This document shows, in pieces, positions 38,782-52,611 of a stretch of DNA of 64,000 bases; position 1 is the first letter of the stretch, and each line of letters opens with the position of its first letter. The DNA is from Halosimplex rubrum (lineage in GTDB: Archaea; Halobacteriota; Halobacteria; Halobacteriales; Haloarculaceae), in the NCBI RefSeq assembly GCF_013415885.1, contig NZ_CP058910.1, forward strand, positions 3,224,001-3,288,000. The letters run 5' to 3'. A model generated the notes under the pieces. The model saw only the letters and a program-made list of their open reading frames with translations, was not told where the DNA came from and searched no databases. Position numbers and translations under genes: made by a program.

Positions 38782-40554
38782 CTACAGGTCCCGTTCGGAC
38801 GCGCGCTCGCGCGCGCGACTCTGGATCGCTTCGTCGTAGACGATGCCGCGCTCGGCGTCCAGCGTCACGACGGTCCCCGATTCGACCTCGCGGGGCAGCG
38901 ACGCGTTGGAGATCATCGGCACTTCGAGCTCCCGGGCGACGATCGCCGCGTAACTGGTCATGCCGCCGTGGCGGTCGATCACCCCGCCGAGCTTCTCGAC
39001 GTCGCCGGCGAACTCCCCGTCGAAGTCCTCCGGGACCGCGAGGATCGCGCCCTCCGGAACCCCGGTGAGGTCGCCGTCCGCCGTCCAGTGCAACTCGCCG
39101 GAGACCAGCCCCTCCACGACCGATCGACCGGACGCGATGGTCTCCGAGGCGACGTGGACCTTCAGCATGTTCGCCGTGTTCACGCCCTCCAACTCGGTCA
39201 TCATCCCCGAGACGACGACCACGGTGTCGCCGCTGTCGGCCGCGCCGGTGTCCAGCGCCGACTGGACGGCGTCGTTGATGACCGCGTCGGCGCCGTCGGC
39301 GGTGTAGGGCGAACTCTGCGGGATGATCCCCCAGGATAGCGCGAGTCGGCGTCGGACCTCCTCGCTCGGCGTCGAGGCGACGATCGGGATCGACGGCCGG
39401 AACTTCGCGGCCTTCAGCGCCGTGTAGCCGGACTCGCTGGCCGCGACGATCGCCGCCGCGTCGATGTCCCGGGCGAGAAAGCGGGCCGAGCGGGCGAGCG
39501 CGTCGGTCTGGGTCTCGTCGGCGTTCGGCACGCGCTGCTCGCGGTTCTCCGCGTACTCCGGGGACTCCTCCACGTCGCGGACGATCCGGTTCATCGTCTC
39601 GACCACCCGGACGGGGTGGTCGCCGATGGCCGTCTCGCCCGAGAGCATCACCGCGTCGGTGCCGTCGAGAACCGCGTTGGCCACGTCCGACGCCTCCGCG
39701 CGGGTGGGCCTGCGCGCCGTTACCATCGAGTCGAGCATCTCCGTCGCGGTGATGACGGGCACGCCCTCCTCGTGGCACGTCCGGATGATCCGCTTTTGGA
39801 TCATCGGCACGTCCTCCAGCGGGCACTCCACGCCGAGGTCGCCCCTGGCGACCATCACGCCGTAGGCCGCGTCGATGATCCCCTCCAGGTTCTCGACGGC
39901 GACCTCCCGTTCTATCTTCGCGATGATCGGGATGTCCGCGCCGAGTTCGTCCAGCGCGGCGCTGATCTCGTAGACGTCGTCGCCGTCGCGGACGAAACTC
40001 GCCGCGACGAAGTCGACATCCTTCTCCGCGGCCACCCGCAGTTCCTCCCGGTCCTGGTCGGTGATGACCGGCAACCCGAGTTCCACGCCGGGGACGTTGA
40101 CCCCCTTGCGCGCCCCCAGGTCGCCGCCGTTCTCGACGGTCGCGGTCACGACCCCGTCGTCGACCGACTCGACGGTCGTCTCGATGCGCCCGTCGTCCAG
40201 CAGGACCACGTCGCCCGGGTCGACGGCGGAGATGTCGTGGGAGACGCCGATCTCCTCCGGCGTCGCCTCGTCGCCCTCGACGAACCTGACCGTCGACCCG
40301 CCTTCGAGCGTGATCTCCTCGCGGATCGGCGCCGTCCGGACCTCCGGGCCCGGCAGATCGAGCATCGCCGCGACCGGACGGTCGGTCCGGCGGTCGACCG
40401 TTCGGATACGGTCGACGAGTTCCCGCCTGTGTTCGGGCGTGCCGTGGCTCGCGTTCATCCGCGCGACCGACATGCCGGTCTCGGCGAGCGCCTCGATCGT
40501 CTCCTCGGACTCGCTGGCCGGCCCCAGCGTACACACTATCTTCGCGCTGCGCAT
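38782..40554 (-). CDS. pyk: Pyruvate kinase with C-terminal phosphohistidine-like domain
   Basis: The 590-residue enzyme begins with KIVCTLGPASESEETI and has MNASHGTPEHR near 35, IIAKIEREVAVENL near 220 with the catalytic Lys, and VMVARGDLGVECP near 242. Residues 345-470 form the third domain. Beyond 475 it carries the PEP-utilising mobile domain (LGGVIDRHGGMTSYAAIVAREL), where the expected TSH histidine is Tyr. It converts PEP and ADP to pyruvate and ATP. Transcription is towards glk with a gap of about 105 bases. Confidence 0.95.
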   Translation of the reverse strand: MRSAKIVCTLGPASESEETIEALAETGMSVARMNASHGTPEHRRELVDRIRTVDRRTDRPVAAMLDLPGPEVRTAPIREEITLEGGSTVRFVEGDEATPEEIGVSHDISAVDPGDVVLLDDGRIETTVESVDDGVVTATVENGGDLGARKGVNVPGVELGLPVITDQDREELRVAAEKDVDFVAASFVRDGDDVYEISAALDELGADIPIIAKIEREVAVENLEGIIDAAYGVMVARGDLGVECPLEDVPMIQKRIIRTCHEEGVPVITATEMLDSMVTARRPTRAEASDVANAVLDGTDAVMLSGETAIGDHPVRVVETMNRIVRDVEESPEYAENREQRVPNADETQTDALARSARFLARDIDAAAIVAASESGYTALKAAKFRPSIPIVASTPSEEVRRRLALSWGIIPQSSPYTADGADAVINDAVQSALDTGAADSGDTVVVVSGMMTELEGVNTANMLKVHVASETIASGRSVVEGLVSGELHWTADGDLTGVPEGAILAVPEDFDGEFAGDVEKLGGVIDRHGGMTSYAAIVARELEVPMISNASLPREVESGTVVTLDAERGIVYDEAIQSRARERASERDL

Positions 40555-43693: not shown

Positions 43694-44650
43694 CTACCGC
43701 GAGATACCGCTCTGTTCGCCCGACTCGACGACCCGGTCGACCTCCTCGGGGGTGACCAGGGCGATGTCGCCGGGGATCGTCCGCTTGAGCGACGCCGTGG
43801 CGGCGCCGTACTCCAGGGCGTCGGGGACCGACTCGCCGTCGAGCCACGAGGCGAGGAAGCCGCCGACGAAGGCGTCGCCGGTGCCGACGGTGTCGTACTC
43901 GTCGGCCTCGAAGACGCCCTGGGCGAACGCCTCGCCCTCGTGCAGCGCCAGCGACCCCTCGCCGCCGCGGGTGACGAGCGTCAGCTCGAAGCCGAACTCG
44001 TCGGCGAGTTCGCGGGCGATGGCCTCGGCGTCGCCCTCGCGGTCGAGGACGGTCCGGGCGTCGCGGACGGCGACGGCGAGCACGTCGATGTCGGGGAACA
44101 GCCCTTCGAGGGTGTCGCGGGCCTCGGCGGGCGACCAGAGCTTCGACCGGTAGTTCACGTCGAAGACGGTCGTCGTGTCGTGTTCGGTCGCGAGTTCGAG
44201 GAGGTCGGTCGTCGTCTCCAGCAGGGTCTCGGAGAGCGCGGGCGTGATGCCCGTGGTGTGGAAGGCGTCCGCCTCGGCGATCCGGTCGGTCGCCAGTTCG
44301 TCGGCCGTCGCCGTGGTGACCGCGGAGTCGGCGCGGTCGTAGATGACGTTCGTCCCGCGGGGTTTACCGGCCATCTCGACGTAGTAGGTCCCCATCCGGG
44401 CGTCGTCGTCCCAGACCACGTCGGCGTCGACGCCGTGGTTGCCCAGGGCGCTGGTCACCCGGCGACCGAGCGGGGAGTCGGGGAGTTTCGACACCCAGGC
44501 GGCGTCGAGGCCGAGCCGCTGGGCCGCGACGGCGACGTTGCTCTCCGCGCCGGCGACGTGTACGTCGAGTTCGTCCATCGCTTCGAGCCGCTGGTGGTCC
44601 GGCGGCGAGAGCCTGAGCATCGACTCGCCGACGGTCACGAGATCGGTCAT
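43694..44650 (-). CDS. kdgK: 2-Keto-3-deoxygluconate kinase
   Basis: The 318-residue PfkB-family kinase starts [17 protein letters not shown] with the Asp/Gly substrate motif and has [16 protein letters not shown] near 32 and the ATP/anion motif [17 protein letters not shown] near 250. It phosphorylates 2-keto-3-deoxygluconate to KDPG, the second step of the semi-phosphorylative Entner-Doudoroff route, after the gluconate dehydratase at 15.9 kb. A TTTAAG box on the minus strand, about 25 bases in front of the ATG at 44650, points to a leaderless message. Confidence 0.9.
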
Positions 44651-44930: not shown

Positions 44931-46844
44931 ATGAGTAGCGAAGACGGGGACAGCGGCGGTGGCGGTATCATGGGCGTCGTCCGGACGGTGGTGCCGGACT
45001 TCCTCAGGAAGCGGTTCGCGCTGAAGTTCCTCATCGTCCTGCTGGTGATGGGGCTGGCCATCGGTGCGGTCGGCCTCGTGGGCACCCAGCAGTTCGTCGA
45101 CCACACTCGCGACCAGGTCGAAAGCGAGTACCGCGGGCTCGCGACCCAGGAGTCGAACCTCGTCAACCAGTGGCTGGAGAGCAACCGGCTGTCGACGCGA
45201 CTGGCGTCGAGCGAACCCGTGTATCGGGGCACGGACGGAAGCCAGATGGCCGGGACGCTCCGGAACCGTCAGGACTCACAGATGCCGAACGACGTGACGA
45301 ACATGCACCTCATCGACACCGGTCCCGGAGGCGGGAACATCGTGGCGAGCACGAACGTCGGAGCGAACACCGACACCGCTGGAACGCCACAGGATTGGGT
45401 CACGGAGCGTAGCTTCTCCTCGACGGCCGACGTGCAGGTTTCGAGCGTCTACCAGAGCTCCAGCGGCGTCCCGGTCGTCGGCTTCGCCAGCAACGTCAAC
45501 GGCACGAACACGCGGTATCTCCTCGTGGAAGTGGCGATCACAGACATCAACAGCCGCCTTCAGGGGGAGGACCGCGCCGAGGGCGGATTCACGACCGTCG
45601 TCAACGCCAGCGGCACCATCCTGATGGACGAGCGACGGTCCCTGCCCGACACGAACACCGACCTGACCCTCGAACAGTACGGCGACCAACAGGTGGTGGA
45701 TGACGCGCTGGCGCTCACCGACGAGCCGAGCGGCGTCGTCTCCAGCCGGACCGACCAGAACGTGATGAGCGAGGAGTACGCGGTCGGCTACGCGCCCGTC
45801 CTCGTCTCCGGCGGCTCAGAGGACTGGGCGGTGCTCGTCCACGCGCCGACGGACGTGCTCTTCGGTGACGTCCAGCAGGTCCAGCAGTTCGGGATGTTCG
45901 CGACCGCCGGCGCCGTGCTGGTGATGCTGCTGATCGGTGCCGCACTCGGGTACAACACCTCTTCGTCCATCGACCGCCTGAAAGGCAAGGCTCAGGAGAT
46001 GGAGGAGGGGAATCTCGACGTGGACATCGATTCGGGGCGCATCGACAGCATCGGCCAGCTCTACGGCGCGTTCGCGTCGATGCGCGACTCGCTTCGCGAA
46101 CAGATCGACGAGGCCGAACGCGCCCGGAAGGAGGCGGAAGTCTCCCGGGCCGAGGCCATGGAGCTCTCGAACTACCTCCAGAGCAAGGCCGAGGCGTACT
46201 CCGAGACGATGCAGGCGTGCGCCCGCGGCGACCTCACTCAGCGCATGGAGCCCGAGGGCGAGAACGAGGCGATGGACCAGATCGCCAAGGACTTCAACGA
46301 GATGCTGACCGAGCTGGAGATGACGACCGGCCAGCTCAAGACCTTCGCCGCAGAGGTCGAGGAGAGCGGTGAGTCGGTCCAGCAGAGCGCCGAGACCGTC
46401 CGCGACGCCAGCGAACAGGTCGCCGACTCCATCCAGAAGATCTCCGACGACGCCTACGACCAGAAGGAGCGACTCCAGAACATCTCCGAGGAGATGGACG
46501 GCGTCGCCGCACAGCTCGAGGACTTCGCCGCCGACAACCCCAACGTCGACTTCGGCGACTCGCTGGACAGCATCCGCGAGGTCGCGAGCATGATCGAGCA
46601 GGCCGCCGACCTCGCCGAGGACACGATGTCCGAGAGCGAGAACGTCGCCGGCGCCGCCGAGGAACAGGCCGCCGAACTCAACGAGGTCTCCTCGCGCGCC
46701 GAGGAGCTCACACGCTACGCCCAGTACCTGGGCGACGGCCTGGGCAACTTCGAGACCGAAGAGGAACACGAGTTCGTCTTCCAGACCGGCGCCGGCTCGC
46801 CCGGCCCCGGCGGTCCCGACGCCGACGAACCCGCCGAGGAGTAA
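44931..46844 (+). CDS. Chemoreceptor-like membrane protein with HAMP but no standard signalling tip
   Basis: The 637-residue protein has a first membrane segment at residues 33-51, an external sensor region of about 270 residues, a second segment at 322-341, and a HAMP region up to about 395. The rest is coiled coil: [18 protein letters not shown] and [19 protein letters not shown]. The usual receptor tip that binds CheA/CheW, an EIVxxIxxIAxQTNLLALNAxIEAARAGE-like block, is replaced by [18 protein letters not shown]. So it may not drive CheA. A GGAGAGGAGAC run in front of the ATG is a Shine-Dalgarno-like site. There are no che genes nearby. Confidence 0.8.
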
Positions 46845-49800
46845 CGCCGTCGCGAGCCCGGACCGTCCGGGCCCACCGATTCTCTCCTCTCTCAGTCCAC
46901 GACCACCGAGTACCGTACTCTCTGCCGGAGTCCCGCGTTTCGAGCGGTCGCGTTTCTCTCCCGATCACTGTTCCGACGACAGCGATTTCCACCGGGTCGA
47001 ACGTGTCGCCGTCCGTCCGCTTCGAGGTCGCTTCACCAACAGCTTGACGAGTTCCTCGACGGGGTTCCGCGTGGCTGTTTCCGACGGGCTCGCTCGGTTT
47101 CCCGGGACGCCGTCGACCGGCACCGAGATCTCGGCCGCGCCATCGACGACCGGCCCGGGACGGTCCATCGCGACGGATGGCGGCGAGTCGACACCTTCGG
47201 CGAATACGACCCGTCGGCGTGTCGGTCACCGCCGCGAGATCGTCGAGTACCCGCGCCGACGCTTCGGCGGTCCGACAGCGCAGCGACGACCCGGCAGTCG
47301 TCTTCCACAGCGTCCGATGCGATCCCGACGGAAGGGGATCGGGAACCCACGCCCGGAACCGGCGAGGAACTCCGACCGCACCGCAGCCAGGCCGTCGCCT
47401 CGGTCCGTCCGTCGGTCGGTGTCCGTCGGACCTTCCATGCTCGTGTGGTCTCGAAACCCGACGAGAACGGCTGTGGGGCGGGATATCGTCCGTTCGAAGG
47501 GTCGCGATATCGGACCAACTCGACAACATTCCGTATAGCGGCATATAATTTATCTATGCGGTGTCGTGCAGTGCTCTCTTCTGGAACGGTTGTGTAAATT
47601 ACACTATTTCGCCGGCCAGGGGGGGATCGTACTCGGCGTGGCTCGGTCGGCGAACCAGTTCGATCTCGGTGGTTCAGTCGAATTGTTCGAACAGTCGGGG
47701 TCGTGCGCCCCCGGGAGAGGCATCGGTGGAAGGTCGACCAGAGCGAAACAGTGCCACGAGGTTGGGGGCCGAGCATTCGAGGGCGGGCCGCTGTCGCGGA
47801 CTCGACCCCACAGCTCGACGGCCGAGGGTGTCGTAACCCGGACTGGTCTCGTTCCCCGCCTGTCGTTCCTCCGGCGAGATAGCCGTCCGGACTGTGGAAG
47901 GGACCCGGCCAGAGCTGCTCCGCGGTCGGCGCGTCTCGTGTCGGCTCGAACCGCGCACCGACAGCTCGCGCGGGATGGGGGTCGGTCGGAGGGTCGGGTT
48001 CGACCGCTGGAACCTACTGTGTCTACTCGGGCCGCCCTGACTGGCACCTGCTGCTGACGTACTTCCCAGCGCCCTTGCGTTGCTCGACGGTCGCCGAACC
48101 GGGTGGCCGGTGTCGACGGCGAAGGGTGTAGGAACGATGGCACACTGCGACGGTCGCGCGTTTGCGACGGCGGTCCGGGCCGGCACCGACCCTCTCCAAC
48201 GCCCTGCCCCTCACGGTCGTCGCGGAGCGTTGAACGGGTCGCCCTGAAAGTACCACAGGGGCCGACGGTCGCGACTGCCCCGAGTTCGTCCTCCGACTGG
48301 TGAGACGGGGGCAGTCGACAGCGTGAGGCGAGTCGAGTCCCTGGCCGTCGCCCGACCATCGTCGCCTACGGACGAGTTCGAGCCCCGACGATTTCGCCGG
48401 CCGTCCGGTGAGAGACGGACTCGGCGGGGACCGTTCCCGCTGGGCAGCACGATAGGGGCCCTACAGCGACCCCGTCGATCTGTCGACCTCGACGAGACCG
48501 GCGAGCCACGCGGACCGTCCCCGAACGCGGTTTCCAAGGGGCGGTTCGCCCCCCGAATCGAACCCGCTGCCAAGTGCCAGGACAGTTCCGTACCGGCCAC
48601 AGTAGCGCCTCTGACGAGTTCGTTGTCGCAACCGGTCTTCGTCCGATACGGTGAACTGTCTACCCTCAGAGCGGCGATTGCGTTCGGATCGTGGTGAGGG
48701 CGGGTCCGACGAGTCGGCCCACCCTATCGTGGCGTCTCGAGGAAGCCACGCGGGACGTGCAACCAGGGCCAGACGCCGCTAGCGCCCCAGTCGTCCCGAA
48801 CACGTCTGAATTTTTATACAGAGGGGTGCGTGCGCCGGAACTCGGGTATCGCCCACGACTACGGGTCCGATCGGGCCGGCCCCGATTCAGAATGAATTAG
48901 ATGTGTATCTCGTTTCCTACGCCTATTTGGACCCATATCTACGCCTATTATCCATTCTATGGCCTCGTAATCAGCACCTCACTCACAAATAAGGGTCTTT
49001 ATCCGGGAGTCTAGACTCCTGGGTTGGACTTCTCTAGTGATTCGGTGTCTGAGTCGAACGCGAGGATGATCGCCGCTAATTCGTCTTTTGTCAGTCTTGA
49101 CTGATTATCATAATCTCGAACGTTCGAGTAGTTCGCGAGCGCCAGGAGCGTCCGAACCATGCCCTCGCGAGTGTGAATTAGCTTCGTGTGCGAGATACGC
49201 CGCCCTCGGTTCTAACGCGCGAAGTTTGGCGGGACTCACGAGGGAGGCCGTTCTCGCATGCGCTACCCCCAGGGGTTGCGTGATCGTGAGCCGTCGAACG
49301 GGGTTTCTCTGAGAGAGGTCTGAAGCGGCGCCGTCGCGGCGAGGTGATCGCATCGGCTCGTGGTCGGTGATCCGAATCTTCGATCCCGATCTCGTGCGAC
49401 GACGATCTGGGTGGGGCAACCTGTCTTCGACCGCTGGTCGAGACGAACCGAGCCACCTCTCGGCGAACCTGTCACTGAGGTAGCCACCGAGAGTGTGTGA
49501 CCGATTCCCGAAGCGTGGTTTCGTCGAGTGGGTATCGACTCGGAGTTCGAGCGGCGAGCGAGTGCCGGTTTCGGAGCAGAGCGTAGTTCTTCGGGGAACA
49601 CCTGCCACAGAACTCGATCACCGATCGGGACACGTCATACGCTGTACACCGTATGTCGGTATAGGCAAGGCGAACAATCTGAGGCAGAAGAGAGGTGGAA
49701 CTGGGAGTGAATCCGCAAATATCGACTTCAACGGATAAAAGCGTCGCTGATAGCAGTCCCCACATCCCGCCTCGCTCCGTCCCCAATGTTTTCGATATCT

Positions 49801-50070
49801 GTCGATTTGTTCTCGGAGAGGGGCTGAATTTTGAATCGGGATCCCGGCAGTACGAGGTCATAACCCCCATTGAGTGCCCCATCGGTCTCGCACTCCCGTT
49901 CGGGTTTCCTCCTGGCCCGGCTCACCAGAGAGTGAGCGAGTGGGTGCTCAAGGAGGTCGGCGCCGGGCCGCTGCGGGAACCGCAGCTGCGGAAGAGTGCC
50001 CGGGGACCAATCCGGCTTATGGGCAGAATATAACAGAATTGTTTAGAAATTCGAGAGAATAGTTATAACC
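46845..50070. other. Gene-poor stretch with decayed coding fragments
   Basis: No convincing gene is found in these ~3.2 kb. The reading frames present are mostly arginine- and serine-rich shadows. Around 46960-47440 the minus strand has coding-like text in shifting frames (MEGPTDTDRRTDRGDG; then AEASARVLDDLAAVTDTPTG; then PGPVVDGAAEISVPVDG), as expected for a gene with frameshifts. At 48900-49700 the base composition becomes AT-rich. A 14-base palindrome GGAGTCTAGACTCC lies at 49006-49019. Composition changes and remnants point to a region of past insertion and decay. Confidence 0.5.
49011..49205 (-). pseudogene. Remnant of an unknown gene, C-terminal end
   Basis: The minus strand carries about 64 codons without the usual arginine bias: GRRISHTKLIHTREGMVRT, then LLALANYSNVRDYDNQ and SRLTKDELAAIILAFDSDT, ending at a TAG at 49011. 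An in-frame TAG stands just upstream near 49205, so the protein is cut off at its N-terminal side; an internal ATG at 49160 opens 49 codons. The family is not recognised. It could be a real small gene of 49 residues, but the strong similarity to a normal coding end without a beginning speaks for a relic. Confidence 0.35.
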
Positions 50071-51161: not shown

Positions 51162-51593
51162 ATGAGCGAGAGCGACGTGGACACCTCGCGGACGGCCGTC
51201 AGGACGTACGTCCCGGCCTACCAGCGCGAAGAGTGGGACGACCACGCCGACGAACTCGGGATGAGCCGCAGCGAGTTCGTCCGGACGATGGTTCAGGCGG
51301 GTCGCCGCGGTTTCGGTAGTGACGACGCGGGGGACTCCGACCTCGACGGGGCAGATACACCGTCGGAGACGGATTCAGAGGAGGCGTCTTCGACGCCCGA
51401 CTCCGGGGGTTCGGGCCTCGAAGACAGGGTCGTCGAGGCGTTGCGGTCGAGCGACTACCTGTCGTGGGACGAACTGCTCGAAGCGGTGACCGACGACATC
51501 GAGGCGGGGCTGGAAGACGCCCTCCAGCGACTCCAGTCGGAGGGGCAGGTCACCTACAGCGGCCGCAACGGCGGGTACACCATCGATGAGTAG
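51162..51593 (+). CDS. DUF5805-type ribbon-helix-helix-like protein
   Basis: The 143-residue protein begins with TAVRTYVPAYQREEWDDHAD and ELGMSRSEFVRTMVQAGRRG, a pattern like the ribbon-helix-helix fold of small DNA-binding proteins, then an acidic linker and a winged-helix-like end (SDYLSWDELLEAVTDDIEAG, EGQVTYSGRNGGYTIDE). It fits the haloarchaeal DUF5805 family. Its last 8 bases overlap the integrase start, so the two are translated together and this protein may act as an accessory or regulator of the recombinase. Confidence 0.82.
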   Translation: MSESDVDTSRTAVRTYVPAYQREEWDDHADELGMSRSEFVRTMVQAGRRGFGSDDAGDSDLDGADTPSETDSEEASSTPDSGGSGLEDRVVEALRSSDYLSWDELLEAVTDDIEAGLEDALQRLQSEGQVTYSGRNGGYTIDE

Positions 51594-52611
51594 GGCCGAA
51601 CGCGGGACGGGGGACGCCGACGACCCCGTCGCGTACTTCCTCGACGACATCACGTTCCAGGGGAAGAGCCAGCGGACGCGCGACGCCTACGAGCGCGTCC
51701 TTCGGGAGTTCGAGGCGTACCTGACCGAACGGGGGCTCGACCTCGACGAGGCGAACCACCGGGACTGCATGGCGTGGATCCACCAGCTCCGCGGGTCGGT
51801 CGGCGAGAGCACGGTCGCCACGTACGCCTCCTACCTCCACCGGTTTTACGGCTACATGACCGAGGTGGGCACCTTCGAGGAGAACCCGATGGCGCTCGTC
51901 CTGGAGGAGATCGACGAATCGATCAACGTCGACCCGGAGCGACGCGACATCGCGATCCCCGCGATGCGGTCGTTCGTGGGCGAGGTGACCCATCCGCTGG
52001 ACAGAGCGGTCGTGGTGACGCTGCTCAAAACGGGGATGCGAGCCGGTGAACTGTGCAATCTCGACAGACGGGACCTGTCGCTGGCGGAGACGCCGTTCGA
52101 GTGGGCACATCGTCCGCAGTTGGACGGGAAACCCGACTCGGTCTACGTCGACGAGGAACCGAGCGCGGGCCACGAGTACAACGGCCAGCGGCGCACGGCG
52201 TCAAACAAGCGCAAACGGGCGACAACGATCCCCGTCGACGACGAACTCGCAGCCGTCCTCGTGGAGTGGCTGGCCGTCCGTCCGGACCCCCGATCGGACG
52301 CCGACCCGTTGTTCGTCAGTACGACCGACGAGTGGGGGAAGCGACTCACCCCGGACATGGTCCATCACATCGTCGAAACGCACGCCCGCGACCAGGGATG
52401 GTACCGAGACGGTGGCGGCGCCGAAGCGAACGTCACCCCCCACTACTTTCGTCACTTCTTCACGACGCATCTCCGCGACCGCACCGGCGACCGCGGCATC
52501 GTGAAGTACCTCCGCGGTGACGTCGCTCAGGACATCATCGACACCTACACCCACGACTGGGGCGACCGCGTCCGCGAAGTGTACTCCGAACACATCTACC
52601 GGCTTCTCTGA
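51586..52611 (+). CDS. Tyrosine recombinase/integrase (XerC/D-like)
   Basis: The 341-residue recombinase has an N-terminal SAM-like DNA-binding domain (RTRDAYERVLREFEAYL, TVATYASYLHRFYGYM) and the catalytic residues Arg in TGMRAGELCNLD, Lys near KRKRATTIPVDDE, the HxxR in PHYFRHFFTTHL and the nucleophile Tyr in IIDTYTHDWGDRVREVY. All key residues are present, so it should be active. It overlaps the DUF5805 gene by 8 bases. Such pairs occur in haloarchaeal chromosomes and in integrated plasmids; the neighbouring decayed DNA favours an integrated element here. Confidence 0.9.
   Translation: MSRAERGTGDADDPVAYFLDDITFQGKSQRTRDAYERVLREFEAYLTERGLDLDEANHRDCMAWIHQLRGSVGESTVATYASYLHRFYGYMTEVGTFEENPMALVLEEIDESINVDPERRDIAIPAMRSFVGEVTHPLDRAVVVTLLKTGMRAGELCNLDRRDLSLAETPFEWAHRPQLDGKPDSVYVDEEPSAGHEYNGQRRTASNKRKRATTIPVDDELAAVLVEWLAVRPDPRSDADPLFVSTTDEWGKRLTPDMVHHIVETHARDQGWYRDGGGAEANVTPHYFRHFFTTHLRDRTGDRGIVKYLRGDVAQDIIDTYTHDWGDRVREVYSEHIYRLL

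What the first reader, a model, noticed from the sequence alone, without database searches (positions are those of the whole stretch)
44931..46844. Chemoreceptor-like protein without the CheA-binding tip
Sensor, HAMP and long coiled coils are complete, but the conserved hairpin tip is replaced by an acidic stretch ([18 protein letters not shown]). It cannot be a usual taxis receptor. It may send signals by another partner or act as a receptor-array modifier.
Basis: partly seen in the sequence, partly recalled or inferred. Interest (0 to 1): 0.55.

Follow-up and report, generated by a model that had tools for sequence, protein, structure and literature searches.

The report
Kinase-blind chemoreceptor family in haloarchaea
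This salt-loving archaeon carries an intact, conserved relative of the receptors that steer swimming; it keeps the sensor and the adjustable methylation region but lacks the part that talks to the signalling kinase, so it probably tunes the system or reports to a different partner.

Summary
The tipless receptor is real: an intact 637-aa gene at 44931-46844 (+). It has a dCache sensor, two membrane helices, HAMP and a short helical hairpin. Relative to 10 alignable normal receptors of the same genome, 175-181 residues (flexible bundle plus kinase-binding tip) are replaced by about 12, nearly symmetrically. The acidic stretch is only a variable loop.

It is one clade (47 of 47 tipless proteins against 30 normal ones; UFBoot 99), found only in the window's own family (Haloarculaceae by Halosimplex): 49 of 391 class genomes. 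The methylation motif AAEEQ is kept in 43 of 47. A C-terminal motif EHEF[VY]F occurs in 42 of 47 tipless and 0 of 31 normal receptors. Helix 2 plus tail is under the strongest purifying selection. All 28 tipless-bearing genomes among 57 have CheR; none of 19 CheR-less genomes has one. Eleven of 47 sit beside a solute-binding lipoprotein gene (normal receptors 3 of 20), so that pairing is not special.

Best reading: a ligand-sensing, methylatable, kinase-blind receptor acting on the adaptation enzymes (confidence 0.42). Rival: an unknown cytosolic partner. New variant of a known kind; HtrM and Af1503 are shorter precedents.

The parts
44931..46844 (+). tipless chemoreceptor gene, 637 aa
   Evidence: orthologues
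45018..45086 (+). first transmembrane helix (about residues 30-52)
   Evidence: sequence; start of predicted helix 23-92, low confidence there
45117..45842 (+). extracellular dCache sensor (residues 63-304)
   Evidence: dCache_1 E 4e-4; model and Foldseek matches to solved dCache domains
45849..45947 (+). second transmembrane helix (residues 307-339)
   Evidence: low confidence there; matches SRII transducer chains from 313 on
45951..46100 (+). HAMP domain (residues 341-390)
   Evidence: Pfam 54 bits
46101..46334 (+). second HAMP-like region and linker (residues 391-468), most conserved stretch
   Evidence: (two HAMP stretches)
46335..46529 (+). first methylation-region helix (residues 469-533)
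46530..46565 (+). short variable turn replacing flexible bundle and tip (residues 534-545)
   Evidence: turn modelled at 536-541
46566..46748 (+). second methylation-region helix (residues 546-606)
46647..46679 (+). methylation motif [11 protein letters not shown] (residues 573-583)
   Evidence: A[AE]EEQ[AST] in 43 of 47 tipless, 15 of 31 normal receptors
46749..46793 (+). conserved C-terminal tail with EHEFVF at residues 612-617 (46764-46781)
   Evidence: 42 of 47 tipless, 0 of 31 normal
43694..44650 (-). divergent neighbour: PfkB-family sugar kinase
   Evidence: same neighbour in 11 of 47 tipless loci

Best explanation
It is a kinase-blind methyl-accepting receptor. The dCache domain senses a small solute, directly or in some members through a partner solute-binding lipoprotein; in this region the nutrient is probably sugar-related (inferred). 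HAMP passes the state to a short four-helix methylation bundle (inferred from homology). Because the CheA/CheW-binding tip is gone, it cannot drive the kinase (shown as absence of the tip; consequence inferred). What selection preserves is the CheR/CheB substrate helix and a receptor-specific C-terminal motif. The most likely output is ligand-dependent use or recruitment of the adaptation enzymes (CheR, CheB or CheD), which sets the methylation and sensitivity of the ordinary receptors (inferred).
For: Symmetric loss of bundle plus tip, keeping the methylation region. Methylation motif in 43 of 47. Conserved tail in 42 of 47 tipless and 0 of 31 normal receptors. Between the window gene and L024/L018, helix 2 plus tail has dN 0 at dS 0.24/0.19; against L020, dN 0.006 at dS 0.30. 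28 of 28 tipless genomes have CheR and CheW, 10 of 29 tipless-free genomes have CheR; 0 of 19 CheR-less genomes, and 0 of 7 with CheW but no CheR, carry a tipless gene. By genus, 10 of 10 tipless genera fall in the 15 CheR genera of 22, chance 0.005; within the 19 CheW genera 0.03. The new loop is variable, so no new contact surface lies there. Precedent: tipless HtrM attenuates phototaxis, and its authors suggest competition for CheB or CheR (PMC6450946, passages).
Against: No methylation, CheR/CheB binding or behavioural effect was shown. The tail is not the known CheR pentapeptide (a terminal xZxxZ), which was found in 0 of 2730 Halobacteriales receptors (PMC7390727, passages). Four ABC-operon members (L074, L076, L080, L083) have lost the tail, and 4 of 47 lack the motif. 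Against the more distant paralogue L023, dN/dS in helix 2 plus tail is 0.28, no longer near zero. CheR of 10 tipless and 10 tipless-free genomes shows no distinguishing feature. CheR co-occurrence rests on few independent genera. Neighbours are sugar uptake and catabolism genes, which may point to a metabolic output.
Confidence: 0.42

Rival explanations
1. It is a sensor with its own, non-chemotaxis output. The shortened bundle or the EHEF[VY]F tail binds an unknown cytosolic protein (a transporter, kinase or transcription regulator) and couples solute sensing to uptake and catabolism. Methylation by CheR would be an adaptation device retained from its ancestor.
For: Solute-binding lipoprotein gene next door on the same strand in 11 of 47 (gaps from about -4 to 30 bp in 7 of them), four loci heading ABC sugar-transporter-like operons, PfkB/pyruvate kinase, KDPG-aldolase-like or FGGY kinase neighbours in others. 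C-terminally shortened archaeal receptors of the Af1503 type are likewise near transporters (PMC4834066, passages).
Against: Solute-binding neighbours also occur with normal receptors (3 of 20). No common partner gene adjoins all members. It is never found without CheR and CheW in 57 genomes, which a free-standing metabolic sensor would not need. The window gene itself has no such partner: its downstream gap is 2.8 kb.
Confidence: 0.36
2. It is a mixed-array component: it joins ordinary receptors through HAMP or bundle contacts and dilutes or locks neighbouring signalling units.
For: Shares HAMP and methylation region with array receptors. HtrM without a tip dampens phototaxis when expressed in another species.
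Against: Array contacts known to me (recalled) lie at the tip, which is missing. The arm length differs by about 80 residues, so a mixed dimer would be out of register beyond the bundle.
Confidence: 0.12
3. It is a relic of a decayed receptor without function.
For: One member (L101) is a 272-aa fragment with altered motifs.
Against: Intact frames, repeated duplication, conservation across 10 genera and dN/dS near 0 in helix 2 and tail among close orthologues.
Confidence: 0.04

Closest known systems
Haloarchaeal methyl-accepting transducers (Htr/MCP, PF00015), e.g. BasT and CosT with lipoproteins BasB and CosB
   Same: Membrane topology, HAMP, methylation helices with AAEEQ, and in some members a partner solute-binding lipoprotein
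   Different: Flexible bundle and CheA/CheW tip absent; extra conserved C-terminal EHEF[VY]F tail
HtrM of Haloarcula marismortui (SRM transducer)
   Same: Haloarchaeal transducer without CheA/CheW tip (PMC6450946, passages)
   Different: HtrM also lacks the methyl-accepting part, has HAMP only, and pairs with a rhodopsin; [quoted passage not shown]
Af1503-like archaeal receptors
   Same: C-terminally shortened HAMP receptors, often near transport genes (PMC4834066, passages; HAMP match 4gn0)
   Different: HAMP is the only cytosolic part; often coupled to a short STAC-domain protein; no methylation bundle
Bacterial receptors with C-terminal CheR/CheB pentapeptide (NWETF)
   Same: Flexible tail with a short aromatic motif after the methylation helices
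   Different: Tail motif is internal, not xZxxZ at the end; normal tip present in those receptors (PMC7390727, passages)

Membership tests
Methyl-accepting chemotaxis protein (PF00015 signalling domain) | MCP signalling domain above curated cut-off | tested here: not met
   15.4 bits against 34.6; absent from own-genome PF00015 matches
Methyl-accepting chemotaxis protein (PF00015 signalling domain) | conserved CheA/CheW-binding hairpin tip (IEAAR motif) | tested here: not met
   12-residue turn in place of 175-181 residues; alignment of 47
Methyl-accepting chemotaxis protein (PF00015 signalling domain) | methylation helices with E/Q pair | tested here: met
   AAEEQ in 43 of 47, aligned to the same helix of normal receptors
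Methyl-accepting chemotaxis protein (PF00015 signalling domain) | methylation by CheR demonstrated | not testable with these tools
   needs labelling or mass spectrometry
HtrM-type rhodopsin transducer | adjacent sensory rhodopsin gene and no extracellular sensor | tested here: not met
   dCache sensor present; neighbours are sugar and ion genes
Af1503-like receptor | HAMP as sole cytosolic domain | tested here: not met
   helices 441-535 and 542-605 follow
CheR pentapeptide receptor | terminal xZxxZ (Z = F, W or Y) | tested here: not met
   C-terminus of the query ends ADEPAEE; motif HEFVF is internal
dCache sensor receptor | double Cache fold | tested here: met
   Foldseek matches to PctD, KinD, PctB domains, E 1e-8 to 1e-6, probability 1.00; Pfam below cut-off

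The most novel reading that the evidence does not exclude
A new class of chemoreceptor that signals only through adaptation: a ligand-gated receptor that docks CheR/CheB (or CheD) by a clade-specific C-terminal motif and controls the methylation budget of the whole array, without touching CheA.
Probability: 0.27. Interest if true: 0.78.

Novelty: new variant of a known kind. Interest (0 to 1): 0.55.

Why it matters
Chemoreceptor logic is built on CheA control at the tip. A conserved clade that dropped the tip once, kept the methylation helices and gained its own tail suggests that the adaptation half of a receptor can be selected on its own. It offers a natural test of whether methylation enzymes carry information between receptors. 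In H. salinarum, demethylation and adaptation persist when the stimulated HtrI lacks its methylation sites, so methyl groups turn over on other transducers (PMC2857822, passages). I found no description of this family in print in searches (open-licence papers only).

Tried and rejected
Rejected: frameshift or assembly artefact (47 homologues including the window); functional acidic tip (variable); independent repeated tip losses (one clade); solute-binding partners as the special feature (3 of 20 normal receptors also have one).

Led nowhere: CheR alignment for a tail-binding difference between tipless and tipless-free genomes. Two literature searches returned nothing or mostly off-topic papers. 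One candidate tipless protein outside the family (L123) proved to have a degenerate tip on reading. L110 was fetched, but my gene caller missed its tipless gene, so it is not in the 47. Three duplicate loci (L025, L072, L096) were dropped before counting. One lipoprotein-pattern hit (L106) was judged spurious and left out of the 11. L123, L131 and L135 were left out of the 31 normal receptors because my tip pattern missed them; they were given to the tree. Of 34 normal receptors given to the tree, 30 were used (2 gave no match, 2 were too short). The 40 loci fetched around tipless genes were chosen by me for spread over genera, not at random. In the class and phylum searches only the 7 best candidates per genome were scored, so copies may be undercounted; the family, class and phylum samples overlap.

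Full report
What is there. The ORF at 44931-46844 (+) is intact, 637 aa. A ribosome-binding-like GGAG lies just upstream of the ATG (sequence). Pfam gives HAMP (54 bits, cut-off 25), a weak dCache_1 and no MCP signalling domain above cut-off (15.4 bits against 34.6). The own genome has ordinary receptors by PF00015, and this locus is not among them. AlphaFold2 on a 9-sequence alignment (mean pLDDT 61; sensor mostly 80-90 up to about residue 210, lower to 304) gives sensor 63-304, helix 307-339, helices 369-431, 441-535 and 542-605 with a turn at 536-541, and a disordered tail. Foldseek finds solved dCache sensors. The transmembrane-HAMP part matches sensory rhodopsin II transducers in the PDB.

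How much is missing. Profiles of the two arms were placed on 13 own-genome receptors carrying a tip motif. In the 10 where both arms were found, the first arm ends 83 residues before the tip motif in all 10, and the second begins 93-99 after it. The query has 12 residues there. So the flexible bundle and tip are gone almost symmetrically, and the methylation region stays.

A clade, not an accident. Eight orthologous loci came from named genomes: six in Halosimplex species, one in a Halobacteriales MAG, one in Halorhabdus salina. A profile of residues 391-612 (A1) separates the tipless form cleanly. In 57 genomes of the same family, 39 places in 28 genomes and 10 genera score 222-431 bits, and the next match scores 134. 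In 391 class genomes, 73 places in 49 genomes, all in the same family, score 199-429 bits, and the next scores 168. In 392 phylum genomes only 10, all in that family, match at E <= 1e-50. The family is Haloarculaceae by Halosimplex. On the region outside the deletion, 47 tipless proteins form one clade against 30 normal ones (FastTree 0.986; IQ-TREE UFBoot 99).

What is conserved. The motif A[AE]EEQ[AST] stands in 43 of 47 tipless and 15 of 31 normal receptors. The tail motif EHEF[VY]F (loosely written) stands in 42 of 47 and 0 of 31. A DNA pattern for it gave 7 hits in 5 genomes, 6 of them at tipless coordinates and one elsewhere; the reversed control gave 0. Between the window gene and two close orthologues, helix 2 plus tail shows no amino-acid-changing difference while synonymous change is 0.19-0.24; the sensor changes fast. 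With the more distant paralogue L023 the ratio in this part rises to 0.28. This points to helix 2 and the tail as the working parts.

Link to the adaptation system. Of 57 family genomes, 28 carry tipless genes; all 28 have CheR and CheW. Of the 29 others, 10 have CheR. Seven genomes with CheW but without CheR, and 12 without CheW, have none. Counted by genus, the chance of this is 0.005, or 0.03 within CheW genera. Some CheR-less genomes are incomplete (57-87%), and genera are not fully independent.

Neighbours. Of the 47, 11 have a solute-binding lipoprotein gene next door on the same strand. Seven were confirmed by Pfam as Peripla_BP_6, SBP_bac_1 or SBP_bac_8 and four by clustering with them. 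In seven of the 11 the intergenic gap is about -4 to 30 bp. Four loci (L074, L076, L080, L083) are followed by ABC-transporter-like operons with, in L083, a divergent IclR-type regulator. Eleven, including the window, lie near a PfkB-type kinase, often with pyruvate kinase. Normal receptors also have such lipoprotein neighbours (3 of 20), and BasB, CosB and two further putative binding proteins copurify with transducers in H. salinarum (PMC3579733, passages). The pairing therefore says what is sensed, not what is sent.

How it may work. Sensing by dCache, relay by HAMP, and a methylatable short bundle are inferred from homology. With no tip, kinase control is very unlikely. Everything conserved in the cytoplasm belongs to HAMP and the adaptation branch, or is the new tail. 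I therefore favour an effect through CheR/CheB/CheD (0.42), with an unknown separate partner close behind (0.36). For HtrM, which lacks both tip and methylation part, attenuation of phototaxis was measured in H. salinarum and competition for CheB or CheR was suggested (PMC6450946, passages). Against my reading: no biochemical proof, loss of the tail in four ABC-operon members, no visible CheR difference, and a tail that is not the known pentapeptide (PMC7390727, passages).

Novelty. HtrM and Af1503-like receptors (PMC4834066, passages) show that shortened receptors exist. A methylation-keeping, tip-lacking clade with its own tail was not found in the papers searched (open-licence library only). 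I call it a new variant of a known kind.

Noticed in passing
window 46845-50070: About 3 kb without a convincing gene lies downstream of the receptor; a similar gap follows the orthologue in L024 (2.9 kb) and a shorter one in L020 (1.5 kb).
   Followed up: no
window 51162-52611: A DUF5805 protein overlaps the start of an integrase-family recombinase gene; the same pair follows the receptor in five other loci (L020, L024, L082, L084, L085).
   Followed up: partly
window 38782-40554: Pyruvate kinase with a PEP-utilising mobile domain fused at its C-terminus.
   Followed up: no
L074 7720-9594, L076, L080, L083: Tipless receptors heading ABC-transporter-like operons keep the methylation motif but have lost the conserved C-terminal tail.
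   Followed up: partly
L101 7980-8798: A 272-aa tipless fragment without membrane part and with altered motifs, possibly decaying.
   Followed up: no
L030 865-2805: An own-genome 646-aa histidine-kinase-like protein has a sensor and HAMP related to the query (28% identity), so this sensor is shared with kinases.
   Followed up: no
L103 5970-10051: Two tandem tipless receptor genes followed by an FGGY-family sugar kinase gene.
   Followed up: no
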